From the NCBI GenBank assembly GCA_021030905.1, contig JAGFMI010000014.1, positions 310,001 through 374,000 of the forward strand: 64,000 nucleotides of DNA, given 5' to 3'. This DNA is from Pyrenula massariospora. Taxonomy: Eukaryota; Ascomycota; Eurotiomycetes; Pyrenulales; Pyrenulaceae. Both the position numbers and the translations under genes were made by a program. Of this stretch, positions 1,604-64,000 are shown piece after piece. Each line of letters begins with the position of its first letter. Position 1 is the stretch's first letter. Under the pieces are notes generated by a model, which was not told the DNA's origin, did no database searches, and saw only the letters and a program-made list of their open reading frames with translations.

Positions 1604-1649
1604 GGAATATTCAATCCGGCATGTTCTTCCCTGGAACTAACTACCTCAG

Positions 1650-2057
1650 ACTGGCCGGTTGAGTGGGATATTTATGAAGTCCGACCACGGGATATGGAAC
1701 GATTTATGGTTAAACTCGTATTTTTTTACGGAACACACGGTTAGACCAGAGTATTAGCAAGCACCCGTCGGTGTTACCAGAAGACGAACTTAACAGCTCA
1801 CTGTCAAGGTCCTCTATTACAATACTTGACGCTCATGAAATGTTTTGAGAATGGAGCCGCTTGCTTTACGGTCTATCATCTCCGTTTCCTCATTGCAGAT
1901 GATATGGCCGAGCGGTATAACATGTTCACGGAAGAATAGTAAGCCACATATGGATTCCAGACCGTCCTATCAGCAAGGAAGTCTGCCTATGTCTGATGCA
2001 ATAACCTTGAGTATGAACAAAGGTTTTACTTTGGTCCTGGAAACGGTCGAATTGTGA
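1650..2057 (+). pseudogene. Coding-like fragments after the F-box frame
   Basis: Three short open frames follow one another in different phases. One starts WPVEWDIYEVRPRDMERF (1652-1744), the next has SKHPSVLPEDELNSSL, and the third has MKCFENGAACFTVYHLRF and ends at about 1939. Their composition is protein-like, but no single frame joins them. A run of seven T lies at the first junction. Either this is the decayed 3' half of the F-box gene, or a homopolymer error breaks an intact one. Confidence 0.4.
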
Positions 2058-2096
2058 GGATTCGTAGCGTATCTCAATGGACAGTTATCTAAGCAT

Positions 2097-35724: not shown

Positions 35725-36051
35725 GATGTGCACAAAGAGGCTATCAAGGGGTGATCAATACTTGCGTAGACTCCTTGGAGCCATGGAAAATTAAAGGTCG
35801 AGAAAGCTCTATGTCGCTGCAGATGTGTTTCGCGGAAAGCTTGGACCAAGAGCAAGGCTGACTTATCGATAGACCCGCTCATTGGGCTTGCCCCATCACA
35901 CCCGTCTATCATAGGCTCTCAATCAGCCTGACGGAAGCTGTCAAAGTCTATTTCCTACCCCGGTTCAGAAGCTCGTACGGGAGTTCAATATTCCTAGATC
36001 ATCTCTGGGCTTGGAAATCTCCATATCCCTTCTTAAAATGCTTGGATTCAG
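35725..36051. promoter_or_regulatory. Divergent promoter region of BET5 and the CaMKK gene
   Basis: Only 327 bp separate the two start codons, so the genes must share this region. An upstream ORF overlaps the kinase start. Confidence 0.5.
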
Positions 36052-40370: not shown

Positions 40371-43300
40371 ATGGCGCAACTTGTAGATGACGATGATACC
40401 ATCGAGGTCAAACCTCGACTTGATGACTCTGATCTTGAAGATGGCATGGACTCAATCAAAGTAGAACCTGTCAAGGACGAGCCCACTCGCAGTGGCTCGA
40501 GCTCTCCGTCTCTTCCACCCTCTAAAATCAAGGGCAGCCGTTCATCGTCCGCGAACTCGACCAAGTCGCACAGCACCACCTCAACGCCAATGGAGAAGAA
40601 AGAAGAAGTCGAAGCAAAGATTGGCGGTGATGTTACGCTCAAGATGGAGCCAGGCCAACCGCTGAAGCTTTCACGATCAACCTCACAGAAGATTGCTGCA
40701 AGACCACCGCCGGTTTTTGATCATCTGCCTGACGCCACCGCTGAAGCGACATCTACATTTGCTACGATGGAGTTTTGTACTTATTCAAATAAGTACTTAG
40801 GCTACACTGAGCATGCCATGGAATGCGATTGCTCGGAAGAGTGGAGTAAGTTCGCCATCCCGCTTTAAACAAGCTTGTATGGTTCATCGCTACGACTATA
40901 CTGATTATTGCCCGTTGCCTAGGCTCTGTGACCAAGAGTAATCATGCTTGTGGGGAAGATTCGGACTGCATCAATCGTGCCACCAAAATGGAGTGTGTCG
41001 GCGACTGCGGGTGCGGGTCCGAGTGTCAGAACCAACGATTTCAGCAACGACAGTACGCCAGCGTGTCCGTCATCAAAACCGAGAAGAAGGGCTACGGTCT
41101 TCGCGCCAATGTGGACCTGCGTCCGCATACGTTCATCTTCGAATATATCGGAGAGGTCATCAACGAGCCGCAATTCCGCCGACGCATGATCCAGTATGAC
41201 GAGGAGGGAATCAAGCACTTTTATTTCATGTCCCTTAGCAAAGGTGAGTTCGTGGACGCAACGAAAAAAGGGAATCTGGGTCGCTTCTGTAATCACTCAT
41301 GCAGCCCCAACTGTTATGTCGACAAATGGGTGGTCGGGGACAAGCTCCGAATGGGAATCTTTGCCGAGCGGAAGATCAGGGCCGGCGAAGAGCTCGTCTT
41401 TAACTATAACGTGGACCGCTATGGCGCCAACCCCCAACCCTGCTATTGCGGCGAGCCCAACTGCACCGGATTCATCGGCGGCAAGACCCAGACAGAACGT
41501 GCCACCAAATTATCGCATGCGACCATCGAGGCTCTCGGTATCGACGATGCCGACGACTGGGACACTGCAGTTGCCAAGAAGCCCCGTAAGAAGAAAGCCG
41601 GCGAAGACGACGAGGAATATGTCGACAGCGTGCAGCCGAAGTCGCTCGATGCCGATGGGGTCACAAAGGTCATGGCTGCGCTCATGCAATGCAAGGAGAA
41701 ATGGATTGCAGTTAAGCTCTTGTCTCGAATACAGCGCTGCGACGACGAAAACGTGCGGAATCGGGTGGTCAAGATGCATGGCTATCAAATTCTCAACTCG
41801 CAACTTGCAGCATGGAAAGATGACTATAACATCGTTCTGCAGATTTTGGATATTCTTGACACCTTTCCTCGGCTTACTCGGAATAAAATCGTCGACTCAA
41901 AGATAGAAGCGACACTCCAGCCTTTAAAAGATTCAGATGATGAGCGAGTATCACAGAAGTCTTCCAGACTACTTGAAGAGTGGTCGAAGTTAGAAATTGC
42001 TTACCGGATACCACGTAAGAAGCGTGATCCCAACGATAACAATACACCCCAGAAGGAACGCTTCGAGCGCAGGGAGTCCGGTCACGAGCGCAAACGATCT
42101 CGTTCTCGATCAAAATCAAGATCAAAATCACCACCCCGCGGCCCATCGGCTTCCTCTATACCATCGGGGCCTAGAGCTGGCATACCACAACGTAACAACT
42201 TCTTCCCACCTCGTCCACCTCCTTTCCATCGGCCGCCTTTCAACCCACTTCCCAAAGGCTGGTTTTCAGCAATCTCGGAAGGGAAGACATACTACTATTC
42301 CTCAGACGGCAAAACCCAATGGACAAGACCAGTCGCGCCAGCTGCCGAACCTCCACCACCGCCAAAGCAACCTTCCAATCAAGATGTTCTTGCGTCAATC
42401 ATCAATAACATCGTGACAGAGAAAGAGAAAGAGCGTGAAGCCAAGACTTCTACCCCGACCTCTGCGCAAGTCGCTCCTGAATCAAAACCTAAAAAGGAGG
42501 AGAGATGGAAATCCTTTGACGAGGACAAAAAGAAAAGGCTGTACGAAAATACTGTAAGTGGCATTGGATCCTGGTTTACTTCATTGTCTAATAGCTTTAG
42601 CTATTCCCTCATGTCGCCCACGTTATGAACAAATACAAGGGCAAAATACCTAAGGATGACCTGAAAAGATTCGCAAAAGAAGTGAGTACTTGACTGCATC
42701 TTGGTGTCAGAGTGTAATGTTGACCGCTCTAGGCCGCCAAAAAGCTTGTCAACGCCGATTTCAAGGCTGGCAAGGTAGAAGATCCCACAAAGATCAGCGA
42801 GAAGCATGAACAGAAGGTCAAGAAATACTGCAAAGAATTCTTTGAAAAAGCCGCCAAGAAACACAGAGAATACGAAAAGAAGAAGCTTGAGAAAAAGGCA
42901 CGACATGCGAAGGCCGCGGCCAAAGCGGCCGGACAGACGCCCGGCGGCGTTGCCGCACCTAATGGTGATGCCTCGCCAGCAATGAAAAAGGAGGAAGATT
43001 CCGACGACGAGGATATCAAAATGTCAGACATCGAAGACAATGACGACGCTCTCGCCGATAAGAAATCCTCCCCGGAAACCCCAAGCTTAAACGGCGACAA
43101 CCTCAAACGCAAGCGCGAAGGCACCGACACCAACGCCCTGGAAACTCCCGACACGTCGCCCTCGAAGAAATTCAAGTCCCACTCCCCACCACCGCCTCCA
43201 CCTCCTCCTGGTCCCCCGGCCGAAACACCGACGGATTCTGTCAGTGCCTCGCCGATGGAGATGCACCACGACGAGGCACAGAGTGGGTTCGCGACCAAGT

Positions 43301-44166: not shown

Positions 44167-45143
44167 TCAATAAAAGCTCTCCACCATCGCATCCTTATCC
44201 TTCCCCGCCACATTCCCCGGCGCATTCCCCTCCCCAAGCCGAAACACGGACTCCACCACGCTCAGCTCCGTGGCCGTGGTGTCCATGCCCGTGACCGCCA
44301 TCCAGTCATTGACCACCATGCCCGCACCCACAACGGGGCTCCCCCGGTTCACGCTCCCCGCCACCAGCGGGACCTGCAGCAGGCTGCTCAGCTCGTCCTG
44401 GTCCTGGATCGGGGTCTTGGGGTGGACAAGCCCGCCGTTGTTGGACAGCGACATGTAGCTGCCCGTCAGGACGTTGGAGGCGATGGTCTGCCGGAAGACC
44501 TCGACGCCGAGAGTGTCGGCGATGATCTCTTCGGTCTCGCGCTCGAGGTCTGGGTGGACGAGGGCGACGTGGTCATTGGTGGAGATGACGTTGCCGAGGG
44601 CGGAGAGGCGCTCTTCGATGCGCTGGATTTTGACGGTGTCGGGGAGGGTGTTGCGGAGGTGGGAGAGTTCTTGGTCGGTGGTGGAGGTGGGGACTAGGAG
44701 GCCTTTGCGGTTTCTGCAATTGGATGGTGAGTTTGGGGGTTGTTAGAAGGGGGAGGAGGGGGGTTACCCAGCGGTTAAGCGGCCGACTATTCGGGTCCCG
44801 GCTATTGTGGCGTGGCAGATGGGTATTACGTCTTGCAGCTCAGCTTCGAAGACACTACCATATTGTTAGTGGATGTCCCACGGAAACGTCTCTGGCAAGG
44901 CCCTTGCTGGTCGATTTTGGTGTGGTGCGCGGCAAGTAGACCTCGACCATTAGAAGAAAGGGTGGCAGTGTACCTGTAGAAATTTTCTGAAGCTCCTATC
45001 GAGACAAGAGCGAATGAATTTGTAAGGGTTGCGAAGACACCGACTCTAGAGACGTGGGTCAGCAAAGCTCCATAGTCAATCGAATGTCGTGGTGGTGTGG
45101 TTCCTTACTCGTTCGAATTCTCAAATTTTGCGCGTACGGCCAT
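44167..45143 (-). CDS. TIF6: Eukaryotic translation initiation factor 6
   Basis: Four exons, 45143-45109, 45045-44974, 44854-44768 and 44713-44167, giving 246 residues, the usual family length. Joints give [37 protein letters not shown] and [20 protein letters not shown]. Later landmarks are [56 protein letters not shown] and [20 protein letters not shown]. The protein forms a pentein ring that binds the 60S subunit through Rpl23, blocks early joining with 40S, and is needed for 60S biogenesis in the nucleolus. Intact. Confidence 0.96.
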
Positions 45144-47360: not shown

Positions 47361-48365
47361 TCAACGACCTATATAAGTTATACTTTCGTCATATATTTCA
47401 CCCTTCCCATACTTCTTTTCCCACTCCTCCACAAGCAACAACAAATCTACCCGGTTCGCCTGCCTTCCTTTGGACCCATCCACGGAATTTGTAGATTCTG
47501 AGAGCACGCCATAGCTGCATCTTAGTAACAGACTTTCGGGTCTTGTCAAGTGTGTCAGCAGCGGCTGGAATATCAAACCCTCGTTGCGTATCCAGGAAGT
47601 TGACCAGAATTTGGATAAGATTACGTCCACGAAGACCTCCTGAAGACCCTGCATGGTGGCGATGTTTTTGAAGGTGCTGATCCAGGCTCGATCGTGCTTT
47701 GAGAGGGGTGCGCGACCGGCCAAGTGCGCAAGTGAAGAGGGCAATTCTTGGATGAGCCGTGTATAGACGTAATTGCCTTGGTCGATGCCGATGGCGTCAG
47801 CTTGTGCCTCTCGGTACGAGTAGACTAGTGGGGGTGGGCTGTTCATTTTGAAGCTGATGCGGAGATTCCGAATAGAGTGTATGAATCCCGGATGGAAAAG
47901 CTGGGGGACGTGACTGTAGCGTAGATCAGGGTCGAATATGTGGAAAATGGTTGATAAATGCATGAGATGTATTGTTTCGTTGTATATACGGCGGCATGTT
48001 AGAGGTAGTGCTAAGATGCCTCTTGTCGGCTCGTTGCCGTGCTCTTTAACATGCGGCAGAGCAATGCAGTCCCATGAGCATGCGATAGAAGGGTCATTAT
48101 GGCAGGCAAAGCTCTTAAGCTCACCGCCATAATTGAAGAAGTGAATCAGAGTCGTGCTGAATGTGAAAATGTATATCTGCTCACGGATTTCTGACGGTAG
48201 ACAGCTGAAGAATGGAGATGCAGACTGAAGGCAAGCCGAATTAGGTGCTAGAATAGCGGATTTCGCATCAGATTTCGATGTCTCTTCGACTTTGAGATAT
48301 TGTTTGAGATAGTCTAAAATTACCGCCATGATGTTGAATTCCGGGACGTAGGTCCTGTAGGTCAT
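47361..48365 (-). CDS. DUF7730-type fungal protein
   Basis: A 334-residue single-exon frame. The segment FFSCLPSEIREQIYIFTFST followed about 60 residues later by ILALPLTCRRIYNETIHLM is the hallmark of the fungal DUF7730/F-box-like group: an F-box-like helix and a conserved Leu-x-x-Thr-Cys-[RK]-x-[IL]-Y-x-E motif. Members are numerous in filamentous fungi, often beside HET and NLR genes, and none has a defined role that I know of. The C-terminus (VDLLLLVEEWEKKYGKG) is helical. It lies in tandem with the two large signalling-type genes downstream of it on the same strand. Confidence 0.75.
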   Translation of the reverse strand: MTYRTYVPEFNIMAVILDYLKQYLKVEETSKSDAKSAILAPNSACLQSASPFFSCLPSEIREQIYIFTFSTTLIHFFNYGGELKSFACHNDPSIACSWDCIALPHVKEHGNEPTRGILALPLTCRRIYNETIHLMHLSTIFHIFDPDLRYSHVPQLFHPGFIHSIRNLRISFKMNSPPPLVYSYREAQADAIGIDQGNYVYTRLIQELPSSLAHLAGRAPLSKHDRAWISTFKNIATMQGLQEVFVDVILSKFWSTSWIRNEGLIFQPLLTHLTRPESLLLRCSYGVLSESTNSVDGSKGRQANRVDLLLLVEEWEKKYGKGEIYDESITYIGR

Positions 48366-48919
48366 GCGAACAGCTAAGGCTTGATATAAAGAGTTTCTCT
48401 TAACGTTGCTCCTAAGCTTTGCGCCGTCTCTGCTAGAGACATCAGGCTATTATCACGACAGCTCTAAGGTTCGCATACGAAACACGAGTCGTGATCGCAG
48501 AAGTTTTATCAACCTCCTTTGGGACTTTTACTTGGATGAGCCACGTACCATGGCACAGGCTGCTGCGTAGCTTAGCCTAGCACCTTTTTGGCATAGCGTA
48601 CAAAAGGAAGGTAAAGAATACTCGGGTGATGATCTTACATTATGATTTCAAGATACCTCAGTCTAATCGATTCTAAGCTTGCGAGATCAATCAGGCTTGC
48701 TTCTTAAAGCTTTTCCGTCTTCCTCGTCACCACCGGCGTCAATGTCGTCCTTCCCCAGTCGCCCCTACACCACGAGGCTCCATCTCTCCAAAAGAGGTTA
48801 AAAGCTCCCCATCGAGCGTTCGCCGTGGAACAGTAGAGAGCGTCTGCAATGCATATCGGCCGCAGCTGTCGGTAAGAAATGGCTGCGTCCCATTTCCAAC
48901 GTAGACCCTCCCAAAACTC
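48366..48919. other. Intergenic region
   Basis: 554 bp between two minus-strand genes; probably the promoter of the DUF7730 gene and the 3' UTR of the hydrolase-kinase gene. No other feature seen. Confidence 0.4.
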
Positions 48920-51832
48920 TCACAATCGACACCCATATTCCACCACCTCGAGTACCGTCTGTTGGAACGCCATCGTAAGCTCCGTCTTCTGCCCATCGTC
49001 ATATTCCACCCCAAAGTCCCCCGTAAGACACTTCCTCACCGCCTCCGCATACCTCGTCCCCATCTTCTGCGGCAGCTCCCCGCCCGTCGCGGCCAGCTTC
49101 TGGACGGTCTTCGCCAGCGACTCTCGCGTCGGCGCATACCCGGTCTCGTCGAGGCGTTTCAGAGCATGTCCCAGGAATGAGTTGACTACCCGGGGAATGC
49201 CGATCTCGAGTAGAACAACGCCCACAGCGTAGAGGTCGTCTGTCTTGGTGAAGCGGCGAGAGGGTGTTTGCTGTCGCTGCGGATGCCGGTATAGATTTTT
49301 CCTTAGCTCGAGGGTTTTTGTGATGTCTGAGAAGTCTTCCTCTTCGCGGGAAATCTCGAAGCCGCTGAGGTAGGCGATGTATTCATTTCGCGCGGGATGA
49401 GCGACGTTTACCTCGTCTTCTGTAAGCGTGGTAACCGGCGCGAGCAAAATGTTTTCCGGCCGGATATCCTTATGAACCCAGCCCCAGCAGTGTAGGTGGA
49501 GGATGGAGGTGCAGACCGCACGGGCCAGTTTAAATCGTTCTTGAAGCGTTGGTTGATATGTTCCCGAGTGTAGCATGTTTTGGAGGGTGCGAATGGTATC
49601 AAAACCAGTGCCGTCTTCGTGGCCTGGGATTCTGAAGAGAAGGGAGAAACTGCCAGTCTCAGGATTTTCGAGATATCCAAGGCACTTGAGCATGCATGGG
49701 TTTGTAGTATTCTCGGAATCTGTTTCCTTACCATCTTGGAACTCAGCTGTTAGACGCTGTAGGACAAGCACTAGCTGCTCTAGTTGCCCTTTAGCCCTCT
49801 CTGCGGCTTCGTTTCCCTTATCCACTATACTATATCCCCTTCCTACGTCCTGCCTAGTGTCTCTGTAGCTCCTTTTCTCAACAATCACAGCTATAGGTGT
49901 TACAGAGCCGTCAGGATAGTAGTGTTGGATTCTTGGGGCCGACTTTACTTCATGATGGTCCAACCTCCCGGCCAACGGAGTGCTCCTCTGACTTTTTAAT
50001 TTGGCGGACCGGAGCCCTATCTCGCGCACTGTCGCCTTCGATAGTCCTGCAGCCCTTGCGGAATCCAGGTCTCTAATCTGTCCAAGTTTGTCAACGTCTT
50101 CAGCACGTAGTAAAGCAAGTAACATAATTCGAAAGACTTTATCCCTACAACTAATCGAACTCTCTTTGAGTCGAACAAGGTTTGAAGGCTGTAGGAGGAA
50201 GGAGTAACGGCTTGATTGCCGTACACGGGCTACAAAATTTGCTTGCCCTATTTCATCAGATATTCCGGTCTTGCTGGTACTGAACGCACGTCTGTATTCT
50301 TCAGAGAGTTCCTGAAAAGGGAGATACTGAGATTCAAGCTCCTGGATGAAATCCGAGATCGCGGTCATGAAGGTATTGGGATGGTGGGCATGAATTAAGA
50401 TAGTCATGGACTTATTCTCGTTGAGGAAATGTCGAAATGCATCGAAGAAAGAGAGAGCGCCGTTTAAGGTGCTGATCACGCGTCGCTCATCCCGGTATTC
50501 CATGAGGCCAATGATACTGGTGATTGATCTACCCATGTCACAAATCAGCCTCAGAGCTTTAGACGCACCAATCCGGTTGACTTTGGCCTTGATATAGGCC
50601 GGGCTATCTTTTGCGTGATCTGCAAGGTGGCTCTTTAGTTCCTGATATGCTGAATCTCGCTTTGAGAGTTTCGCAATCATCGAATGATTTTTGTGGATAG
50701 CGATCCTGGTCTCGTTTACTGTGTACAAGCAAGCAGAATTCGGAGTGACCATCATTTTTGGGGGCCCAGTCCGTTCCCATGAACCTGGATCATTAGGTAG
50801 GCTCTGAGAGGTAGGCGTGGACTCCAACTCGAAGCAGCTAATGATTTTGAGGTTCTCGGACACGCTTGCAAATTTTTCGTTGAGGTCGCGGAGAAGAGTT
50901 GAGTTCTCTCCAAGGTCCGTTATTAGCCCATGTCCTGGGCTTCCACGAGTCAGCTCCTCCAAAGACTCAATTTCAAGGCCTCGATGAGGCGATCCGAAGA
51001 AGACGACCGAGTAAACGCGATTCAGCAGCGCATCGAATTCTGGGTCATCTGAAAATTCGACAAGCAGCTGTAAATCAGTGAGTAAGTATCCTCCCCCAAA
51101 AGTGGGCAAGAGTCTCAAGGATATTCAAATCGAAAGCATTACCTGCTTCACTATCAAGCAGCCTAAGCTATGTCCCACCAGAATTAAAGGGCGGGACCCC
51201 TAGTTCGTCAGTATTGGTCTATTATTGGCTAGAATAAGATACGAACAGAACCATTCGAACCAAGGTAGTCAAACAAGCTATGTGCGAAAGCATTCGTGAA
51301 GTCTTTGAGTCTAGCACTCGAGAGGGTTTTCTGTAATTTCGAAGGATAGCCGTAAATGTGAGTCTGAGCGTTCCGTAAATCATTAGGCAAGGCGTCACGC
51401 AGCCACATGGACCCATCCGGAGTTTGCCACGAAGCGAAAGGCTTGCCTGCTATGCCTGTTATTGCAACGACGCTTGTACCGCGGATTAGTCTCTCTCCCA
51501 GCGTTCTAGGAATGGATTACATACTCAACGGAATCTACGTGAGAGGCAACTTTGGCCAACGGAGTAAAGCCATCGAAATCCTCATCGAGTAGATATGTCT
51601 TTCCACGGAAAGATATGGACGATCCCGAGAAATATTTAGCGGCCACATCATTGGGAATGGTAACAGATGCCGTCACTGTTTCCTGATGGGAGTCCCGTAA
51701 GCTTGCAAAGGATGTGGTTATTTTATTCCAATCGTGTTCAAGTCCAAGGCTTTCCAAAAGAGCCTGAGCCGTAATTCCTGGATCAAGAGCATCGATTCGG
51801 AACGTCCTGAATGGAACCTTCGGCGAAGCCAT
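48920..51832 (-). CDS. Alpha/beta-hydrolase fused to a degenerate kinase domain
   Basis: Four exons, 51832-51525, 51472-51247, 51199-51143 and 51067-48920, giving 912 residues. Residues 1-100 form a small module (PFRTFRIDALDPGITAQALL) of the sort found at the front of fungal NLR proteins. A SERAC1/DUF676-like lipase fold follows: VVAITGIAGKPFASWQT, nucleophile elbow GHSLG (Ser189) and FFGSPHRGLE (222-228). The middle 400 residues are helical. The C-terminus is kinase-like: LHLHCWGWVHKDIRPENILL keeps His-Lys-Asp (729-731) and Asn736, but the metal-binding DFG is replaced by LSGFEIS (765-767), so catalysis is doubtful. It lacks a NACHT or NB-ARC domain. In fungal NLRs such hydrolases are N-terminal effectors, so this looks like a stand-alone effector-plus-sensor. 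Function inferred. Confidence 0.82.
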
Positions 51833-52233
51833 GGTAATCACGATACCAGGGAGTTGTGGATAGGCAGATATTAATGTTCTATACCCAGCTCGAGATGGCG
51901 CACCGCGTCTAAGTGCTTTCGGGATCTTACAACGATGGCGGTGAGCGGTTTCAGAGCGCTTGTCAGATGGTCGCAGCGCAGCCTGACGAGAGCACGTGAT
52001 ACAGATGTACTACTACAGTACCGATATGACGGCACTAGGCAAGCCACTTCATTGGCCGTTTAACGCCAAATCAAATCTTTGTGTCACCCATCCAGATGTC
52101 TACTTACGTCAGAGAAATGAGCACCATATTTCAGACTGGGCCTTTAACGAAATCATACTCATCCGTGACTTCGTTGATCACATGGGATTAGTACCTGCAA
52201 GTTAGTGATACCGATGTCCGAGTATATGTACCT
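51833..52233. other. Intergenic region between the two fusion-kinase genes
   Basis: 401 bp between genes in tandem on the minus strand. A CACGTG E-box lies near 51992. No gene seen. Confidence 0.4.
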
Positions 52234-55200
52234 TCAATCTTTCCGAGCCTCGTACAAGACATCCCAGTGTCCAGTCCAGAAAGGTTGCGTCTCCGGGGCC
52301 TCTAGGAAATACCGGTCGATTTCTCGATCCCAATCCGGAAGAAAAGCTTTGTCCCAGGACCGCGGACCGTAAGATGAATAGTTGTAACTCACGCCACAAA
52401 CCTTTTGGGCTTGCAAAGCTCCCTTGTCCTTCAAGGCTTTGAGGACATCGATGCATCCAAAATATTGATTGACTTTTCAACACAGAGTTAGCTCAAGTTC
52501 CCCCAGCACCTTCTATTGCGCTGCTTACGTTCATGCATGTTAGTCTCATACAGGATCCGTGAGGCTACATCCAGTTAGTTTAATAGAAAACGGAGGACTG
52601 GCTGATTTCCTCACAAACATCACTTTCAGTGAAAGGTCTCCAGAATAGTGCTTCCTGAGCTTTTCGATCCTCGAAAAGCACATGACGGTGCATGAGAGCC
52701 TCCAAATTGAGATTTCGTTGTGAGAAAACGAATTGTCGTCGATCTCGCTCCCATCGGACAATGCCATCAACAAGCCAAGTAGTCATCCAGCGTTGCCTCG
52801 TCCACTGAGCCTTTTCAAGGGCAACATCCAACGCAGTTGCTCCTCTAGCGGAAACACTGTTAATATCTTCCATCAGGGACATCAAGAAATTGACCATGAG
52901 GGGATTTGAGTTATCGCATGAATACATCAGTGCAGTCATACGGTCCTTCCGTGACATCGAATTTCTAATGTAATCTTTTTGCTCGAACAGCGGCATCCGC
53001 TGAAGGTGTCTCTGGATAAGCCGAAGACATTGCTGATCAGGTATTTCTTCATTGTGACAAGCATGAAGAAGGAATCCGCAACCGTCTTCATCCTTTACAT
53101 TTTGGTTAGCATCCATGTCTAAGAGCCACTCAGAGTAAGCTACGGCAGTATATTGGCCGTCTTTTGATGATTTGTTTTGTATTGCATGAAGTAGAGGAGT
53201 TTCTCCATACTCGTCCGCGATTTCGAGCAGCCCAGGAGATACTGAAAGCAGCCTTTGAGTCACATAACGAAAATCCAGCACCTGACGGGAGGCAATAGAA
53301 TGATGCATAACGCTCTGACCCTGATAATCTCTAACGCTGATATCCGTCGTGTGGGCCAAAAGGACCTCGAAAACGGACCCGAATGTCTCCTTATAAGGAA
53401 GTATGCGACCGTCCTTAGCTACCCACTCGTGTAGGGGTGTATCTAGGAAAAAGTCTCGAACAGAGTTCGCGGAGGCGCCTCCGTTTAATAGCGCCAGAAT
53501 TGCCCCACCATTTGAACAATGTGCAGCGTCGATAATGGGGCACGTTTTCGATGAGCCAACCACCTTAGAGTTAGAATCTAGGTCTCCTCCTGAGGATAAT
53601 AAGAGTTTTACACATCGCTGAAGCTCCAATACATGGGTTTTCCATGATCCGTGGTACGCCCACCACTTAAAACCCAATGACATATGAAAAAGGCTATTAG
53701 AGTGATTTGAATTGACTGCAAGCATATGCATTGGACTGGCTCCTCTTTCATCCAGCCGATCTGCTTTCGCATTCCTCAACAAAAGATGTTGAACCATGAG
53801 ACTATCACCGCGATACGCCGCCATGGACAGACTAGTCTGCGCCGATTCGTTTTCACGGCCATCAGGAGAGTCAACGTCTGAACCAAGAGCAAGAAGCACG
53901 TCACAAGCTGATGGAGAGCGCGCGAAGGTCGCCCAGTGTAGAGGCGTCCCAGCTGGCCAGTGAAACGGGAAATGTAACCAATTAATAGGTACTGTATGCT
54001 TTCGGTCTCTATTCTGTCTTGTCAATTGCCCGACCTGAGCACCTTTGGCAATAAGTAAATTTCCAACATGCTTATGGTCGCGATCATTGAAATTGAATAG
54101 CCAATGTAGGCACGAGATGCCGTGAACAGATGAGCAAATGCTAGCATCAGCGTTGAAAGCAACTAATATCAAAACACAAGCCACGTTTCCTGCAAGGCAT
54201 GCTTTGTAGAGTGCTGTCTCACCTAGACTGTTTACCGCATTCACATGAGCGCCATGACAGAGCAATAATTTGAGAAGGCTTACGTCTCCAAATGCAGCAG
54301 CATAATGCAGTGGTCGATTCCCGTCGCTGTCTAACTGCGATTCGAGAGAGTCTGTCAGATCTATGGAAGCAGATCCGGCCGCAAACCGAGACATCTTGCT
54401 AAGTTGGACTGCGGACATGCTCTGATTGTATCCGCCGTTCCTAACGAAGTCTTTGCGAGCTTGTTCTGCTGCAGCGGGATCAATTGAACGCAGGTCTTCC
54501 ATCGCAATTAGAGAACCAGTCATTGCTCCATTATAAAGCCATTCTTTTGCTTCGTCCAGTCCTGGCTTCGAAGAAAATTCAGGAATTGCTTCCAAGAACC
54601 TTCGAACAATTGCCTGGGCTGGAATGCTAGACTTGCGCGCGGCTTCAACAGTGTACTCAACCGCGCGCGTACGATATCCAGGGATAGGCGAGCTTAACAA
54701 TCTTATCGCCATTCCAAAAAGGGTTCCGTGACTAAAGTGCGATCCTTTAAAAAATTTTGGGTCATTGTATTGCAACTCTAGCTGACTGAGTGCGGCGCTG
54801 TCTAGAAATGAGTAATACGAATATTCGCTACCATAAGGACGAATAGCGAGTGCATGTTCCGGGGAGCCGGTGCTGATCGGCAACTGACGGTTAGCAAGCC
54901 TGGCGTTCTCGTTAGGCAGAACTTCTACATTGGAACAAAAAACAAGCTTACCAGTGGTGGTAGCTTTCAGTGTTACATTCAAGTAAGTGTGGAGTGAGCT
55001 CAGGCCGATTTTCAGGCCGCCGGTTCAGCAATTTACGAATAAGATCTCCTAATTTTTTACTTAGCCGTGCAGAAAGGTTTAAATTGTTAACATCGAAGAT
55101 AGGTTGAGTAGATAGGAAGCCAGAATCTTGTTTAGCGGCAGCGGGCACTGGATTCCCGAAGTATAGGAACATCGACATAATCACCAGGCCATAAGCGTAG

Positions 55201-56068
55201 GCGTCGCATTTCGTTAACAGTTTAGCAGGGAAGTCGGGCCCGTCTTGGGAATCAGACATGGTCTCTGGAGGCAGCCAATCTCGTGTGCCACGGTAGACGC
55301 GATAACTTTTGACATACCCGTCAAGACTGATGCATTGGCCGAAATCGCTCAATTTTGCCACGTAGGGGACGCGATCATTATTTTGTTTGAATATTAGTAC
55401 ATTCGATGGCTTCAGGTCCCCATGTGCTAGGCCGGAATCATGCACGCATTGAAGTCCGGAGGCAATGTCGAGTCCAAAATGATGGCGGATATCTGCAGGC
55501 GTCATTGTCGAGGTGCTGATGTCACCTCTTTGTAGAAAAGCTCTAAGAGAGCACAGACCTTTCTCTACAATCAGAGTCGGGAGTCGGAGGTTTAAGTCGC
55601 TGGTAGGATAGTCGTAGCCCCAAGCCACGAGGTCAACGACATTTCTGTTCAATCTTCGAATTGGATCGCACAGAGACGCGATCTCCAATTGAATTGTTCT
55701 CAAGCGGGCCCGGGCTTCCTGATTCTGCGGCAAGACGGCTGGCACTGACTCAAACACTCTCACGCGTTTGAATACAACGCGCTCTTCGAGTTCGTAAGCG
55801 TCTTCGAAGACATCAAACTGAGCACCGCCCCCAATCCACTTCCCACGTCCCGAGAGACTGGGAGCGCGTAGATGGCGTGGCCCGTCGACCCCAAGTTTTC
55901 CAAGATCGGCCACCATGTTAGATAGGAATGTCAGAGCTTGTTCCCCTGGACCATCTGCACTGAGCGCTTGTGCCAACGTACAAGATGACAGGGAAAATCC
56001 GATCTAGACCTATTAGACCACGAGCGACAATGCGTTTCGGATTCTGTGCTTACTGTGGATAAATCCAT
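52234..56068 (-). CDS. Protein kinase-ankyrin repeat fusion protein
   Basis: Five exons, 56068-56054, 56003-54952, 54899-52615, 52564-52529 and 52472-52234, giving 1208 residues. The kinase at about residues 55-350 has GGGAQFDVF, a candidate ATP lysine (VVFKRVRV, Lys84), HGDLKPSN (Asp201 for the catalytic base, Arg of HRD replaced by Gly), LSDFGQC (225-227) and GTRDWLPPE, so it could be active. A helical linker follows, then eight or more ankyrin repeats, such as DGNRPLHYAAAFGDVSLLKL and LGETALYKACLAGNVACVLI. The last exons encode a distinct block (KVCGVSYNYSSYGPRSWDKA, DWDREIDRYFLEAPE, FWTGHWDVLYEARKD) unknown to me. The first exon is only 15 nt; joining it restores an ATG, since the larger frame begins with TTG. 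Likely a cytosolic receptor-like kinase; target unknown. Confidence 0.82.
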
Positions 56069-56633
56069 GACCGGCAGCCCACCTTAATATGAACTGTAGC
56101 TGATTCTCAAATAGATTTGTCGTGTACCTGGCCCGCAACCTGGAGAAGAAATGGTACCTATTGGGGTTGCGCCTGAGCGGAGCCCTCGGCTGCCGGCACG
56201 ACGATATTCCGAGATATCAACGGCGGTTGGACGTATACCTTATCGCCAGATATCCACGCCGCCGGCTAACCGAGACGCTGAGCGCGCTCGCATCTCCGCT
56301 CTCATAATCAAAACTCTGTCCGGACGGAGTGCTTAAGGCATGGCCTCCCTGATTGCGTGCCCGCTCGCTACGGGACATTCGATGTGGAAAGAGGTAGCAA
56401 TGGTGGTGTGGGTGTGGGGTGCTGCTGTAGCGGCGTAGACGCCGTATGTATATGGAATACGCTGCTGCTCGCGCTACTGGGAGGGGCATATAGTGGTAGG
56501 GCAGCTGCGTACTTCCTCGTACAAGGCTCTGTTCTGGCTGCTGCGACATGGCTACGGCCTATTCTGATCGAAGTCGCCTCAGAAGCCTGTCGGCCGGCTC
56601 AGCTCTACCACCGAAGCCACCACGACCACGATC

Positions 56634-57640
56634 ATGACCATGACCGCGGCCGCTATGACGACGAGTCTGACCTCTAGCTCTAGCAGCTCGATCCAGCGCG
56701 ACATTACGAACAACGCCGAGTTACTAGCGAACGCGCAGAGCATACTGTCCATGATTCATACGGCTAGGCCGAAGAATACAAATCTGGTGTATAGTCCTAA
56801 GCAGAAGGAGTTCCAGGTATGGCTAGTCAGTCATTAGGAGTGTTTGGACCTTCTCTACGTTCCGCTGACGCATTATTACTACTACCCCTAATTCTGACCA
56901 CGCGTGCCTGCAAGCAGAATCAGCATGGCCGCCTCAAGACAGCGGATGCAATGCACAATCAGAGGCCGGTCATGTTTATGCTAGGCGAGCTGGCTTTCTA
57001 CTGCTGTACCGCTGAACTTTCCAGACCTCAGCAGTCGATCTACCTAATACGACCTCCGGCTGATCAAAGCTAGCGGCTGTGTAAGAGTCTTGCGTATAAC
57101 TCACATCGCGACGAGTTTTTAACGTCATTCAGCAACGACGACATCACATCGGTAAAGAAGATGTACGTCGGCTGTAGCTCCGGCACGAAGACAGCCGAGC
57201 TGAATGGCGTTTAACGAGGACCAGATCCGCCGTTCCGGCCGTTGAAATCACGAGTAGACGATCTGCTGCAACCTGAACTTGCTGCAGCACAAGTTTATAT
57301 GCTCTATGGCCGGCCACCCCCCTCAGTTCGAGATCAGCCGTGGTGCCATTACGCCACCGGACGAGCTACTGTCGATGATCTGGCCCGATCTGGACATCTG
57401 AAAGGGCGGCTTCAGCCTACAGCAGGGCGAAGTAAAGGACCGGGCGGCGAGCGGTCGAGCCAGCTGTCGGTTCTGAAGCACTCCCTGCCCGTACTTGCAG
57501 ACTTTCTGCCGTTGATCGATGTGCGCAAAAAAGCAAGGGGGTACAGGCTTGAGCTTCACCCTCAGCCAGCAGCTGGCTGCCGAGTCAGAGCGCACACAGG
57601 CCTTGCAGCTGCAGCTGCTCACGTCTAGCACGCTCATCCT
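56634..57640 (+). mobile_element. Decayed Crypton-like (tyrosine recombinase) fragment
   Basis: One frame at 56634-56837 reads a Ser run, then AQSILSMIHTARPKNTNLVY followed by SPKQKEFQ, which resembles the start of fungal Ndc10/Crypton proteins (R-P-x-N-T-x-x-x-Y-x-P-K-Q-x-E). A second frame has GRLKTADAMHNQRPVMFMLG and GELAFYCC, like the central part of the same proteins. The two lie in different frames with at least one stop between them, and no recombinase catalytic residues were found. No terminal repeats are expected for Cryptons. Family call is tentative. Confidence 0.35.
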
Positions 57641-57807
57641 ACGGCTCTATGGGGTGCCCCCGGCGCTGCTAGCGCTCTCATTGCGATTGCAGTAGGCACA
57701 CCAGGCACGTGCGATTGGCTTGAGTCCACTGTGTCACCACGGGTTTCTGCCCTCGGTCAACAATCGGCGATTCATGCGAATCTTTCTCCTCTTGCTTCCG
57801 GCATTTC

Positions 57808-57833
57808 GCCTTTTGCCTTTTGCCTTTTGCCTC
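57808..57833. repeat. Three tandem GCCTTTT units
   Basis: The 7 bp unit GCCTTTT repeats about three times in a row within a pyrimidine-rich tract. It is a simple-sequence repeat. Confidence 0.6.
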
Positions 57834-58722
57834 CATGCTGTCGGTGGTCAATATCATGTACACCCATGTTTGAAATTGGCAAATACGGCTGTCTCTGGCA
57901 TAGTGGAAAGTGCCAAAACCAAATCAGACCATCGAAAAATAGGTGACAAAGCTGATGATTCCTCGCCACCTTTGATAGAACTCTGTATCTATGACATTAA
58001 CACTCTACATCTGAACGCCTAATAGCGACTTTTAGGCGACCTTTTGGCGGTCTTTGGCCCTCTGATCCCCGGCGCGACAACGACTACCCTCACCTAATCT
58101 CTACTACCGCCATTAATTTCAACACATTTTGTGGCAATTGATTTTTTTTACCCAGGTCTGACTTTTTGGAGGCGTTTTTGAATATGAAAACCAGGCAATC
58201 AACACTTGAATTTGGTTTCGAACATCCGCGGGTGGCCTAATACCATCCTCATGCCAGCCTTGCAGCCTTTCTTCGCCCCGTAACGAGCGTCTTCGCGTGA
58301 GGTACTAAAGGATGCTCATATGCCTAAGGCATCCTAATTCCGCCTAAGATATTTTGAAGATCCTGCGACACATCCTAGCTACGTTTTCCAGAGCAAATGG
58401 CGCCTTGCATGCTGTTACGAGACCAGTCACCTTCCCGTTCCTCTGCACGATCTACACTCCACGTAAGCCGTATTGCTGAATATCGTTGCATTAGGCAGCC
58501 GACCTTAGTAGCTATAACGAAGATCATGATCAGCAATAACTTCGCTGGTCCTACTGACCGGGCTAGAGCACGCTCGCCACTGCAGAAGTATCTCGCCGAG
58601 GTGTATGAAGCAACCTTCGCAAAGGGTGGCTTTTCATTAAGAAGACCGCGCATTAAGTGAACTTAGTTACTCCAACAGTTGTGAGCTCGAAGATCCATGA
58701 GCGTAAGCCAACTCGATTGTCC

Positions 58723-61700
58723 ATGGCGAGTACAATAAGCCAGCGAACCTCAAATGATTACACCGAAGCTTTGGAGGGGTTGCTCGCAGAGATCCAATTA
58801 CTAGACCAAGCCCATGCTTCAAGTCGATGGTCGCGGAAAATAGCTTATCGGCTACAACCCTTTATCGCTTTTATAGAGCGTTATTCACCTGCTGTTGATG
58901 TCGGAATCCAAGGAGCACTCAGCCCTGCTGGTATTATTTGGGGCTGTCTGCGTGCAATCATGGTGGTAAGCCCATTGCTTTGCTGATACTTCACTCGACA
59001 GCATCCTCCAATGCTATATACTTACAGTTTCGACCGTTTCGCAGTCTCTCAGATCCTTCAGCCAGTATCTAGAAAGCTTTGTTTCTACAACTGAACGCCT
59101 TGGAATGACGTTGTCAATTTATTGTCAGTATGAGACTATATTAGGACAAAACTCAGCATTCCGTGATTCTTTATCTTGGGTTTACAAAGACGTGCTTGCA
59201 TTTTTGAAACATTCCAAGTCTGTTTACTGCAAACCAGGCATGATCTCTTCAACTTATCGGTGATGGTAGCAATTAATTGTCCGTAGGTATTCTACTATTT
59301 ACCTCTACCCTTTGGCGGGACTTTGATACCGAGTTTCATGATGTGCTCCAGGTCATCCGCAGACGCATCGATATACTTCGAGAGCAGACGACCTTCACTT
59401 ATCGGCATAATCTGATACAACTCATTCAGAAGCAAAATCAAGTGCTGATAAATATTTCAGAATCAGCAGCCATTGAAAAACTGCAAACAGAGGTGTGTTT
59501 CCTAAGTATTTGTGAACCATGTCCCTAAAATCGGCTTAGGATCAATTTCAAAAGTGGCTCGGTGCCACTTCTGCGTATGATTTTCTCATCCAGCAAACCT
59601 CCAAGAAACTCTGCTTTAGCGGAGATTGGCTATTCTCTTCTAAGGAATTTCATAATTGGCGTCGGTCAACACAAGGATTCATGTGGGTAACCGGACCTCC
59701 AGGGTCTGGTAAGACCGTCTTAAGCACCTCTATCGTTGAGCACCTCCACGCCGAATCATCGGAGATTGTATCGTACTTCTTCTTCGATTTCTCAAACCCA
59801 GAATGCTCGACATTACTATGTGCATGTGCGACCTTGATCCACCAATTGGTTTCCTGGGAATGTGTCATACCTGAGCAGCTCGAAAAGGCTTTCCGACATT
59901 CTCAGAAATTGGCCGGCAAGAAGCTGTCGGAGCAAGAGGCTTTGGATGGTCTCCTTCAGACTGTCGACAGCACTACACGTCAAATCTCGATTATCCTTGA
60001 TGGACTGGATGAAAGTCCAGAGCCAGCCAAAATCGCACGCTTCTTACTGTGTTTTAAGAGTCGAGTCAATGTCAAGATGATCGTTCTTAGTCGCGCTGTT
60101 CCAGAAATTAGTACCGCTTTGGGAGAATATCCCACCTTAGCGCTTAATTCTGTGAGCAACAAAGATGACATCTACGCTTACTTGCACCATGTTATTCCTG
60201 AAACTGGAGTCGAGCATACCACTTGGACGCACGAAGAGATAATTGAAAAGCTTCACCGTGGCGCTGACGGGACGTTTTTATGGGCGAGCTTGATGGTGGA
60301 TGCCCTGAAAGCAGCCATATGCCCAAGCGAGATTGACCAGATCTTGAACGAGCCTTATCTGAATGTTGAGGGTATGTACATCAAATCTCTACGTCAGTCA
60401 TCACGCAAGAGCCCAGCCGAGCAAGAGGTTTTACGGCGGCTGATATACTGGGTCTGTTGCTCCCAAAGGCCATTAACATTAGTGGAGCTTCAAGGAGCTA
60501 TAGCAACATCTCAGAAGCATGGCACTTTTGATCCAGCTAGAAAACCCTTCAGTGTTGTAATACAGAAATTGTGCTCTGCCTTTTTCACCGTTGAGCCCCA
60601 CACGCAGGTTGTCAAGCTAGCGCATGCGTCTGTCAAGGATTTTTTCCTCAGAGCATCAGAAGACAATGAAATCTCGCCCTCCACGGCGAGATTTCTGGTA
60701 GAGAAATACCAAGGTCACCAGAACGTTGCTGTCGAATGTCTGATCCTGCTCCATACAACACTTCATGCCTCTGGGGATGCTAGGCCGAAGGAGGTTGAGC
60801 CTCTCACCTATTATGCATGTTTCCATTGGCTTGAGCACATATTGCAGTCGACACACACGCAAGAAGTCGTTTCTAAAGTCGCGTCATTTCTAGGATGTGA
60901 TTGCCGACAGCGATGGATTTCGAGTTTCTTATTTTGGCAGAAGCGGGAATTTCCACTTCAGAGATTACTGTCCCTTCGAACTCAGCTTTTTGCGTGGCTA
61001 TGCCTGGAACCTTCGAGCAAACTTCCTAATTATATGGACTGGGCTTTCGACGTCGCCACATGCTTATTAGAGCTCTATCGAGACCAACGTCTTTCGACAG
61101 ATTCTAACGGAAATTGTTACAACAAGACAATCTATAGTCCAGACACTCTTTGCCACTTTGAGATTATGATGGTCGTTCGGGATCTATCACGACATTTTAC
61201 TCAGACCAATAGAATAACAGACGCAGTCAACTTCTTCAAGCGTGCACTTGCCGAAGAGGGAGGCGTCATATCCAAAAGTCCAGATAAATTGATATCGGTA
61301 TGGCTGATGAACACGCTTGGCATTCTTCTTGATCAAGAGGGTGACATAAATCAGGCGACGAAGATGCAGGAGGATGCCATGCACACTTTAGGCCAACATA
61401 ATTCCACTCTCAACCATTATCAGATGGCAATATGGACCAAGAACGAACTTGGTCGTATGTATCGCCACCAGAAACGCTATGCGGCGGCGGAGCAAATGCA
61501 TCTTGAAGCTCTAGACGCCTTAGAACGATCTCCTGACATCCATAGTTCTGCTGAAGTTGAGATCGCCTGGACACGCAGTACGCTCGCGCGCGTCTACCGC
61601 TTCCAAAGCCGCTTCGACACCGCGATCGAGCAATCAACCGCCGCGCTGAGCATCCGCAGGCGGATTTTAGGCCCAGACCATCCGCACGTCTTGTGGCTGC

Positions 61701-62014
61701 AAAGCGACATTGCGCAGTGCCATGCCGGTAAACGGGACTACGCGACTGCTGTCGCACACCACAGGCAGGTATTCGAGGCTCGGCGGAAGGTGCTAGGCCC
61801 CAAGCACCCCGATACCTTGTGGACGATGAACAATCTTGGCATTATGTTAGCGATGACCGGAACACTGGGGGTGGTGGAGTCACGGGCGATTCAAAGGAAG
61901 GCGCTGAAATATCAGGAGGAAGTTCTCGGGCCAGAGCACCTGCACACAAAATGGACCCGAGAGATTTTGGAAGCGGAACAGACTGAAAAGGTCGTCGCAT
62001 CAGGCTCTTCGTGA
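58723..62014 (+). CDS. NLR-type STAND protein: DUF7708-NACHT-TPR
   Basis: Four exons, 58723-58965, 59045-59237, 59287-59492 and 59540-62014, giving 1038 residues. The N-terminus (ALSPAGIIWGCLRAIMV, FSQYLESFVSTTERLGMTLS, SWVYKDVLAFLKHSKSVY) is DUF7708-like, a helical domain common at the head of fungal NLRs. The NACHT has Walker A GPPGSGKT (266-273), Walker B SIILDGLDE (about 364-372) and a winged-helix-like part with HASVKDFFLRA. TPR repeats fill about residues 765-1030 (RRRILGPDHPHVLWLQSDIA, RRKVLGPKHPDTLWTMNNLG). Such proteins oligomerise on sensing a ligand and trigger incompatibility or defence; that role is inferred here. Intron 2 (59238-59286) begins GC, after CCAG; without it exon 2 runs to a stop. 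The adjacent TPR protein is convergent. Confidence 0.88.
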
Positions 62015-62919
62015 TCTTCTTAGGACGACATTTGATTTGATACTGCTCAAGAGCGGTCTTGGATGACAAGTCTGTTCTACAGCATGTTTATCTCTTGTTG
62101 AAAAGAACGGTACAATTCCTCTTGGCTAAATGTAGGTAAGGTGCAAGCTCGGCAAAACACTGCCAAAAGTAGAGTGAGAGAGGAGTTGGAGACCAGACGC
62201 ATTTACTTCTACTCCCAGGGAGCTAATAGCCAAAGTTTGATGTCGAAAACAGAAGAGATGCTTGAAAGTTATGAGTTTCGAAAATATTGTCCTTGACGAA
62301 GTAAGGCACCATTTAGCTGCGGGCAAAACAATTTCATTTTCAGCATTCCTACTTGCAAAGCCGAATCTTGACATCGAGGCTATAGCACTAGCAATACAAC
62401 AATGGAGTTTTCAAACGGGATTTCGATCATTGCTAAGCCTCAAAATATGCGTAGACATTATTTTAACCTTGGAGGAGGTTTTGACCGCCGGGGCCTGTAT
62501 TCTTTACAAGCTCTTCGCTTTCCCTGAGATCCCGCAGGTAACAGTCACAAATACATAGTGTACCATACACTCGCTGGTTTTACTCGCGGATGGCTTTCCT
62601 TCTTGGCTTGCAGTGCCGGTAGACCCTGTGCTCACAAGCATATGTTATGTGCAGACGGGGATTATCCACCAGTCTCGCTCGGCCAAGGAAACCTCAGCCA
62701 AAGGGTACGACCAGAATTCGCAGATCTTCGCACTAGCGCTGAAATGCAGTTCAGTGCAGCGTAGTGTGAATTTTCGAGAGTCAACTGTACTATACTGCAG
62801 GATTGCAAAACCCTAGGTGCGACGCATCACGGCGGAAAGGCTTACGGTAGAGTCATCCTGTCATCCCTGATCTGTTGTCACTCTTGTCGTTCTTAATTGC
62901 AATTAAATGGTTAAAACAT
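62015..62919. other. Convergent intergenic region between two TPR genes
   Basis: 905 bp. A 98-residue frame at 62262-62558 (+) has helical composition but starts and ends without support. Nothing else seen. Confidence 0.4.
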
Positions 62920-64000
62920 CTACCGCACGTGGTCGGCATTTGTCTCAGATAGGCTAGCCGCTTGACGCTGAGTGGCAGCTTCTTGCCACATGCTTAGTTG
63001 TTCCAGCATAAACTCTTTATCTCGATCGTCAAGGTCAAGGACGAAAGGGTGTTCAAGGTCAAGCGTCCAGTTACGGTCTTTGTAGTATTCTTTCATCCGT
63101 TGCACAGTCTTCCCGTGTTTGTTTTGCATTTCCAGCACATTAGCGAGGCTAGCTATGCTTTCTAGAGTGGAAGGATGCTGATCCCCTAACACCCTTCTTC
63201 TTATTTCCAACGCTTGTACTTCAAGCTCTTCAGCCTCGTTGAACCTGTACTGAGGTATGTACGATGCCCTTGCCAAGTTCGACATACTAAGCAGTGTATC
63301 GGGATGCTCATCGCCCAACACACTCTTGCTCATTCCAAGCACTCGGCTCCCGAGCTCTTCCGCATCTTTCCACTTCCGTCGATGAGAGTATGTCACTGCC
63401 AGATTCCTTATGATGTTGAGGGTATCGGGATGCTTTTTTCCAAGGATCTTCTCACGTAGCCTCCAAACTTCAATTTCAAGCTCCTCCGCTTTATCTGACT
63501 GGCCACCATTTGTAAGACATGTTGCTAGATTGGCCATACTAGTTAGTGTGTCCGGATGCTCACCACCAAGCGTTCTAAGGCACGTCTGCAGAACTTGTTC
63601 ATTAAGCTCCATAGCTTCGCTGTACCGGCCCTGGCTGGCAAGTACCGATGCGAGATTGTGCGTGCTACCAATCGTGTATTCGTGCTCCGCTCCCATTGCT
63701 CTTGGGCTTATGTTCATTACTTGCGTACATAACTCTTCAGCTTCTTCCAACAGACCTTGCTTGCGGTATGTGAGTGCCAAGTGAGCTACGCTAGTCAATG
63801 TCCGTGGGTGGTCGTTCCCAAGCATCCTCAAGCTGATCTTCATTGCTTGCATCTCCAGCTCTTGAGCCGTCTTCCATTGGCCTTGATCCTTCAGTAGAAG
63901 CGCAAATTCAGACATAAGGCCTAAGGTTAGCTCATGACCCTTTCCAAATACCTCTTTCATGTCTTCAAGCTCTCTCTGATAAACTACCTGGGCCCTTTGT
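62920..64000 (-). CDS. TPR-repeat C-terminus, probably another NLR (partial)
   Basis: The frame is open to the window edge, so the 5' part is missing. About seven 42-residue kinesin-light-chain-type TPR units are visible, each with a core like LGxxHPxTLxSxxNLA followed by GxxxEAEELxxxV: for example LGGEHPDTLTSMANLATCLT, LGKKHPDTLNIIRNLAVTYS, LGDEHPDTLLSMSNLA and LGDQHPSTLESIASLANVLE. The units are very alike, which suggests recent expansion or conversion. The end (LDLEHPFVLDLDDRDKEFML) is typical of the tails of fungal NACHT-TPR or NB-ARC-TPR proteins. Whether a nucleotide-binding domain precedes it cannot be seen. Confidence 0.75.
   Translation of the reverse strand, partial: QRAQVVYQRELEDMKEVFGKGHELTLGLMSEFALLLKDQGQWKTAQELEMQAMKISLRMLGNDHPRTLTSVAHLALTYRKQGLLEEAEELCTQVMNISPRAMGAEHEYTIGSTHNLASVLASQGRYSEAMELNEQVLQTCLRTLGGEHPDTLTSMANLATCLTNGGQSDKAEELEIEVWRLREKILGKKHPDTLNIIRNLAVTYSHRRKWKDAEELGSRVLGMSKSVLGDEHPDTLLSMSNLARASYIPQYRFNEAEELEVQALEIRRRVLGDQHPSTLESIASLANVLEMQNKHGKTVQRMKEYYKDRNWTLDLEHPFVLDLDDRDKEFMLEQLSMWQEAATQRQAASLSETNADHVR

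What the first reader, a model, noticed from the sequence alone, without database searches (positions are those of the whole stretch)
47361..64000. Accessory block of receptor-like and kinase-fusion genes next to housekeeping genes
Five of the supported genes here are multidomain signalling types: hydrolase-pseudokinase, kinase-ankyrin, DUF7708-NACHT-TPR, a second TPR protein, and a DUF7730 protein. The preceding 10 kb holds BET5, SET2 and TIF6. The shift is abrupt and a mobile-element fragment lies inside. NLR families are established fungal incompatibility and defence proteins; that the neighbours act with them is inference.
Basis: partly seen in the sequence, partly recalled or inferred. 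Interest (0 to 1): 0.75.

Follow-up and report, generated by a model that had tools for sequence, protein, structure and literature searches.

The report
Fungal receptor gene neighbourhood with kinase fusions
Next to ordinary housekeeping genes, this fungal DNA carries a small group of genes that look like self/non-self alarm receptors and possible partners, including one protein that appears to join a lipase-like enzyme to a dead kinase resembling the animal cell-death protein MLKL; whether the genes work together is not known.

Summary
The gene content described is real. I built four complete gene models: DUF7730 (A), hydrolase-pseudokinase (B, 912 aa), kinase-ankyrin (C, 1208 aa) and DUF7708-NACHT-TPR (D, 1038 aa). 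A fifth, TPR gene (E) is cut by the window end. A decayed Crypton-like recombinase remnant lies between C and D. SET2, TIF6 and a Sybindin-family (BET5-type) gene lie to the left.

Only D passes as a complete fungal NLR. A is single-domain, E shows only TPRs, and B and C lack a nucleotide-binding domain. GC3, codon use and RIP indices give no sign of a separate origin. No fungal genome could be searched, so 'accessory', presence/absence and co-evolution are untested.

The point beyond ordinary is B. Its kinase-like domain has GFE where kinases have DFG, as MLKL does. Its activation segment finds MLKL as the six best of 26 solved-structure sequences; the same segment of C finds none in 59. C, a kinase with its catalytic motifs kept, ends 401 bp upstream of B on the same strand. 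A kinase-to-pseudokinase relay is imaginable but unproven.

The parts
47361..48365 (-). Gene A: single-exon DUF7730 protein, 334 aa; probably not a signalling protein
   Evidence: DUF7730 1.6e-29; 2EXR 0.023, below cut-off
48920..51832 (-). Gene B: hydrolase-like domain (GHSLG at 187-191), helical region (about 360-575), pseudokinase (HKD at 729-731, GFE at 766-768); 912 aa; exons 51525-51832, 51247-51472, 51143-51199, 48920-51067
52234..56068 (-). Gene C: protein kinase with catalytic motifs kept plus ankyrin repeats; 1208 aa; exons 56054-56068, 54952-56003, 52615-54899, 52529-52564, 52234-52472
56568..57692 (+). Remnant of a Crypton-type recombinase in broken reading-frame pieces
   Evidence: 2 of 6 pieces match PF16787 below its cut-off
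58723..62014 (+). Gene D: complete NLR, DUF7708-NACHT-winged helix-TPR; 1038 aa; exons 58723-58965, 59045-59237, 59287-59492, 59540-62014
62920..64000 (-). Gene E: TPR protein, 359 aa visible, cut by the window end
   Evidence: TPR_10 5.6e-61
44167..45104 (-). TIF6, nearest housekeeping gene (frames 44167-44742 and 44829-45104)
   Evidence: 4e-56; 0.0059

Best explanation
The block is a loose neighbourhood of fungal non-self-recognition genes, of the kind already known as NLR clusters. Shown by sequence: D has the parts of an NLR in NLR order. Inferred: its TPRs sense a ligand, the NACHT domain exchanges nucleotide and oligomerises, and DUF7708 passes the signal on. C (ankyrin sensor plus kinase) and B (hydrolase-like domain, helical region, pseudokinase switch) are NLR-like proteins in which a kinase-type domain stands where an NLR would have its NTPase. 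A is probably an unrelated member of an expanded fungal family. The genes most likely gathered by birth-and-death evolution in a tolerant interval; they do not look like a transferred island, and working together is not required.
For: D carries Walker A and B and all domains. SesB-like hydrolases and protein kinases are both listed as N-terminal domains of fungal NLRs and ANK/TPR as their repeats (PMC4986451, passages). Clustering is common: 602 of 2349 NLRs in 272 clusters, only 16 of them made of paralogous copies (PMC12258605, passages). Block genes do not differ in codon index (0.834-0.844) from the four window genes outside the reference set (0.826-0.846).
Against: Only one complete NLR is seen; E counts as a second only if an NTPase lies beyond the window. 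Repeats of C, D and E reach only 19%, 20% and 41% identity over 100 aa (ungapped), against the 85% that marks highly conserved NLR repeats (PMC4986451). D and E are convergent, not a head-to-head pair. No expression, strain or sister-species data.
Confidence: 0.55

Rival explanations
1. Chance neighbourhood: A-E belong to large, unrelated fungal multigene families that happen to lie side by side; kinase, ankyrin and TPR proteins here do not serve recognition.
For: A is a single-domain family; B and C have no NTPase; no compositional boundary; repeats not of the fast-evolving class.
Against: Three multidomain fusions within 15 kb, one a complete NLR, and architectures close to lists of fungal NLR parts.
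Confidence: 0.3
2. C and B form a relay: the ankyrin-kinase C senses and phosphorylates B, whose MLKL-like pseudokinase then frees the hydrolase to damage membranes and kill the cell.
For: C ends 401 bp upstream of B on the same strand. B has GFE as MLKL does, MLKL gives the six best of 26 matches for its activation segment, 0 of 59 for the same segment of C. Some fungal HELL domains are joined to kinase/pseudokinase domains and such pathways are often two- or three-gene clusters (PMC12881547, passages).
Against: With the longer B query IRE1 and GCN2 come first and MLKL tenth. The segment was chosen after MLKL had been seen. B keeps HKD, MLKL has HGK. B's helical region has no sequence relative and the models are unusable. 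C's nearest solved kinases are DMPK-like, not RIPK.
Confidence: 0.1
3. The block is cargo of a giant mobile element such as a Starship, or was brought by the Crypton-type element.
For: A recombinase remnant lies inside; a putative NLR was found on one Gaeumannomyces Starship (PMC12134995, passages).
Against: No DUF3435 match in 47 Pfam queries, some overlapping; no repeats of 40 bases or more in the window; no compositional shift. Cryptons are only very distantly related to Starship captains.
Confidence: 0.05

Closest known systems
Fungal NLRs with TPR repeats (e.g. NACHT/TPR and NB-ARC/TPR proteins of Podospora anserina, PMC4986451)
   Same: D: variable N-terminal domain, NACHT-type NTPase, TPR array
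   Different: N-terminal domain is DUF7708, not seen in the part of that paper's domain table shown to me; repeats not highly conserved internally
Fungal NLR clusters as defined for Sordariales (PMC12258605)
   Same: One NLR and a possible second (E) within 40 kb and fewer than eight genes
   Different: E's NTPase not seen; B and C have none and would not be counted
MLKL pseudokinase, and fungal HELL-kinase/pseudokinase proteins (PMC12881547)
   Same: GFE for DFG; activation segment closest to MLKL among solved structures; a region in front of the pseudokinase predicted helical, at very low confidence
   Different: Hydrolase-like N-terminus; HKD kept; no sequence match of the helical region to the four-helix bundle
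CryptonF transposons (PMC3212892)
   Same: Pieces match NDC10_II; yeast Cbf2/Ndc10 is reported as CryptonF-derived (passages)
   Different: Broken; no GCR1_C match in the six pieces; ends not sought in detail

Membership tests
Fungal NLR (gene D) | Central NACHT/NB-ARC NTPase with Walker A and B | tested here: met
   NPHP3_N 6.9e-37, NACHT 8.1e-7; GPPGSGKT at 266, IILDGLDE at 365
Fungal NLR (gene D) | C-terminal superstructure-forming repeats | tested here: met
   TPR_12 4.4e-37, four stretches
Fungal NLR (gene D) | N-terminal effector or signalling domain | tested here: met
   DUF7708 31.8 bits, cut-off 25; a distinct N-terminal domain, its function unknown
Fungal NLR (genes B and C) | Central NACHT/NB-ARC NTPase | tested here: not met
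   no P-loop NTPase family and no Walker A pattern in either
Highly conserved NLR repeat class (C, D, E) | 85% internal repeat identity over at least 100 aa | tested here: not met
   best 19%, 20%, 41% (ungapped; C by its earlier model; E only in part)
MLKL-like executioner (gene B) | Pseudokinase lacking the DFG aspartate | tested here: met
   GFE at 766-768 aligned to MLKL's GFE; a stray DFG at 881-883 lies far beyond that segment
MLKL-like executioner (gene B) | Four-helix bundle / HeLo-type membrane domain | tested here: inconclusive
   no sequence match; models of pLDDT 33.1 and 39.9
MLKL-like executioner (gene B) | Phosphorylation-triggered oligomerisation and membrane damage | not testable with these tools
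   needs experiment
Alpha/beta hydrolase (gene B N-terminus) | Curated family match and catalytic triad | tested here: inconclusive
   DUF3089 0.0027, Abhydrolase_6 0.019 and others, all below cut-off; GHSLG; Asp and His not assigned by any search
NLR cluster (PMC12258605) | Two or more NLRs less than 40 kb and fewer than eight non-NLR genes apart | tested here: inconclusive
   D is one; E is cut by the window end before an NTPase could appear
Starship cargo | DUF3435 captain | tested here: inconclusive
   no match in 47 Pfam queries; not every frame was scanned and the right side lies beyond the window
CryptonF remnant | YR/NDC10-type protein with GCR1_C domain | tested here: inconclusive
   two of six pieces match PF16787 below its cut-off; no GCR1_C match
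Accessory genome | Presence/absence variation among strains or sister species | not testable with these tools
   no genome held; no fungal genome collection offered

The most novel reading that the evidence does not exclude
Genes C and B form a necrosome-like pair in which an ankyrin-receptor kinase activates an MLKL-type pseudokinase, but the executioner is a lipid hydrolase where MLKL has a four-helix bundle: a cell-death relay with the MLKL switch joined to an enzyme, in a fungal defence island with an NLR.
Probability: 0.1. Interest if true: 0.8.

Novelty: new variant of a known kind. Interest (0 to 1): 0.4.

Why it matters
Whether fungi have regions like bacterial defence islands is put forward as an open hypothesis in PMC10197012 (passages). 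A stretch with an NLR, a receptor-kinase fusion and a hydrolase-pseudokinase fusion is a candidate for testing it. If B and C prove to be a relay, an MLKL-type pseudokinase switch would be shown to control more than one kind of executioner. If not, the block is one more ordinary NLR neighbourhood.

Tried and rejected
Whole genome of the window: none held. Viral contigs: B, no pattern match; D's long exon, seven pattern matches, none confirmed. Prokaryote genomes for B: 16 pattern matches, none confirmed. These collections are not fungal, so this says nothing about how rare B is. A, C and E were not searched there.

Structure prediction of B residues 341-912 and of its helical region alone, each from one sequence: mean pLDDT 33.1 and 39.9. 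No fold search was run on models of that quality.

Foreign origin by composition: GC3, codon index and RIP indices show no shift (3 of 128 bins in the whole window have a composite RIP index above 0). The codon index used seven window genes as its reference, which favours those seven. Searches used the earlier, shorter model of C.

Amyloid signalling: simple RHIM and PP patterns, written from recall; no RHIM core in B, C or D, one loose PP-like match in C at 642 inside the ankyrin array, taken as chance.

First model of C ended at 52580 (1128 aa). It was replaced by one with two more introns and a longer C-terminus (1208 aa), because both introns have GT-AG ends and lengths near the others. 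The added piece has no Pfam match and no RNA evidence backs any intron.

Bacterial defence libraries: C's kinase exon matches MADS6 kinase models (8.7e-25; 5.5e-7, far under its cut-off), read as general kinase similarity.

Literature: DUF7708 in 0 papers. The search for fungi, pseudokinase, hydrolase domain, NLR, ankyrin and MLKL gave 9 papers with at least five of six terms (listing only); no title or abstract start there describes a hydrolase-pseudokinase fusion in fungi. (listings) likewise show none in what was listed (15 of 137 and 2 of 2).

Full report
What was asked. No whole genome is held for the window and no collection of fungal genomes was on hand, so what follows rests on the window, family libraries, solved structures and papers.

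Gene models. Stop-to-stop frames were listed and the block genes spliced by hand with frame-keeping introns. A is a single exon, 47361-48365 minus, 334 aa. B has four exons from 51832 to 48920 minus, 912 aa. C has five exons from 56068 to 52234 minus, 1208 aa. D has four exons from 58723 to 62014 plus, 1038 aa. E runs from 62920 on the minus strand past the window end; 359 aa are visible. Of ten introns nine are GT-AG and one (the second of D) is GC-AG; lengths are 47-79 nt. I chose all of them; there are no transcript data here.

Domains. A: DUF7730, E 1.6e-29, with a 2EXR match below cut-off. B: kinase-like C-terminus (PK_Tyr_Ser-Thr 1.7e-5, just above its cut-off; Pkinase 1.8e-4 and DUF7580 1.8e-3, both below theirs) and an N-terminal part that meets only sub-threshold alpha/beta-hydrolase families: DUF3089 0.0027, DUF726 0.0088, C2orf69 0.0099, Abhydrolase_6 0.019, LIDHydrolase 0.033. 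It has a GHSLG elbow at 187-191. Its best solved match is a serine hydrolase at E 0.83. That these families share the hydrolase fold is recalled. The hydrolase call is therefore inferred, not proved. C: Pkinase 2.4e-21 and ankyrins 1.4e-33, on its two long frames. HGD, the later asparagine and DFG are in place; the glycine-rich stretch and lysine (residues 62 and 84) I assign from recall, and the helix-C glutamate was not assigned. D: DUF7708 1.5e-7, NPHP3_N 6.9e-37, NACHT 8.1e-7, TPR_12 4.4e-37 and a winged helix 0.3 bits under its cut-off. E: TPR_10 5.6e-61.

Surroundings. TIF6 is at 44167-44742 (eIF-6 4e-56) with a weak further piece to 45104 (0.0059). The SET2 frame is 40850-42628 (SET 1.9e-24, AWS 4.7e-9, WW 0.0079). 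A protein kinase is at 36587-37534 (2.6e-49). A Sybindin-family gene, fitting BET5, is at 34953-35754 (2.5e-19; 0.001). Between TIF6 and A, four frames scanned gave nothing above chance: one without a match and one with two weak ones (Ntox6 0.088, GST_N 0.15), two without a match. The far left has an F-box-like gene (0.0014, below cut-off) and an APH gene (1.2e-13).

Mobile element. Of six reading-frame pieces from 56568 to 57692, two match NDC10_II, in order and on one strand (E 9.3e-4 and 4.8e-3, both below the curated cut-off); two have other chance-level matches and two have none. Yeast Cbf2/Ndc10 is reported as derived from CryptonF elements, which encode YR and GCR1_C domains (PMC3212892, passages). 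I read the remnant as a dead Crypton-type recombinase. Starship captains carry DUF3435 and are only very distantly related to Cryptons (PMC12134995, passages). No DUF3435 match appeared in 47 Pfam queries, some overlapping.

Is it a distinct island? GC3 of block genes is 0.453-0.549, against 0.377-0.849 for eleven other window genes. The codon index is 0.834-0.844 for the block, 0.826-0.846 for four genes outside the reference and 0.850-0.885 for the seven reference genes, which favour themselves. RIP indices are unremarkable. So there is no compositional sign of a separate history; this neither proves nor excludes presence/absence variation. Repeats of C, D and E reach at most 19%, 20% and 41% identity over 100 aa without gaps, far below the 85% that marks highly conserved repeats (PMC4986451, passages).

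The pseudokinase. In B, HKD and the following asparagine are kept but DFG is GFE at 766-768 (alignment with IRE1). A stray DFG string at 881 lies far beyond that segment. MLKL is reported to have GFE for DFG and HGK for HKD (PMC5104457, passages). With the 82-residue activation segment the six best of 26 distinct solved sequences are MLKL, E 7.5e-4 to 0.11; the other 20 are IRAK4 at 0.45-0.49. I chose that segment after MLKL had appeared with longer queries, so its E-values flatter it. With the C-terminal 227 residues IRE1 (1.2e-4) and GCN2 lead and MLKL is tenth (0.0028; 60 of 184 shown); with 396 residues MLKL is tenth of 11 (0.0084). As a control, the matching segment of C finds DMPK, MRCK, ROCK, PAK4 and others and 0 MLKL in 59. 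The helical region between hydrolase and pseudokinase has no relative by sequence (chance-level matches only), and both predicted models are unusable.

Mechanism. Most likely, D senses through its TPRs, oligomerises through its NACHT domain and signals through DUF7708; C senses through ankyrins and signals by phosphorylation; B is an enzyme held by a pseudokinase switch. These are inferences from families. C ends 401 bp upstream of B, and B 554 bp upstream of A, all on one strand; D lies 2654 bp from C, divergent; D and E converge, 905 bp apart. Fungal cell-death pathways are often two- or three-gene clusters, and some HELL domains are joined to kinase or pseudokinase domains (PMC12881547, passages). 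A C-to-B relay is thus a fair hypothesis, at about one in ten.

Against what is known. Fungal NLRs carry SesB-like or PKinase N-termini and ANK or TPR C-termini (PMC4986451). Alpha/beta hydrolases are among the four largest effector families (PMC9815663, passages). In Sordariales 602 of 2349 NLRs lie in clusters (PMC12258605, passages). An analogy to bacterial defence islands has been offered as a hypothesis (PMC10197012, passages). The block fits this picture. B's combination of domains was not seen in the listings, which is a weak statement. Hence: new variant of a known kind, moderate interest.

Noticed in passing
59238-59286: The second intron of gene D is frame-consistent only as a GC-AG intron among the donors I tried; the other nine introns of the block are GT-AG.
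   Followed up: partly
54952-56003: C's kinase exon matches the bacterial MADS6 defence kinase model of PADLOC (8.7e-25), probably general kinase similarity.
   Followed up: no
30639-31460: A minus-strand frame matches secretin-family seven-helix receptors (7tm_2 7.2e-9; Dicty_CAR 9.1e-4, below cut-off).
   Followed up: no
296-3108: An F-box-like gene (0.0014, below cut-off) and an APH phosphotransferase gene (1.2e-13) at the left end: a second non-housekeeping patch.
   Followed up: no
57804-57832: Short tandem array of TTTTGCC, 4.1 copies, beside the recombinase remnant.
   Followed up: no
44167-44742: TIF6 has GC3 of 0.849, the highest of the 16 genes measured (next 0.576), as might be expected of a highly expressed gene.
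   Followed up: no
62241-62555: An open 105-residue frame between D and E without a Pfam match; chance or a small gene.
   Followed up: partly
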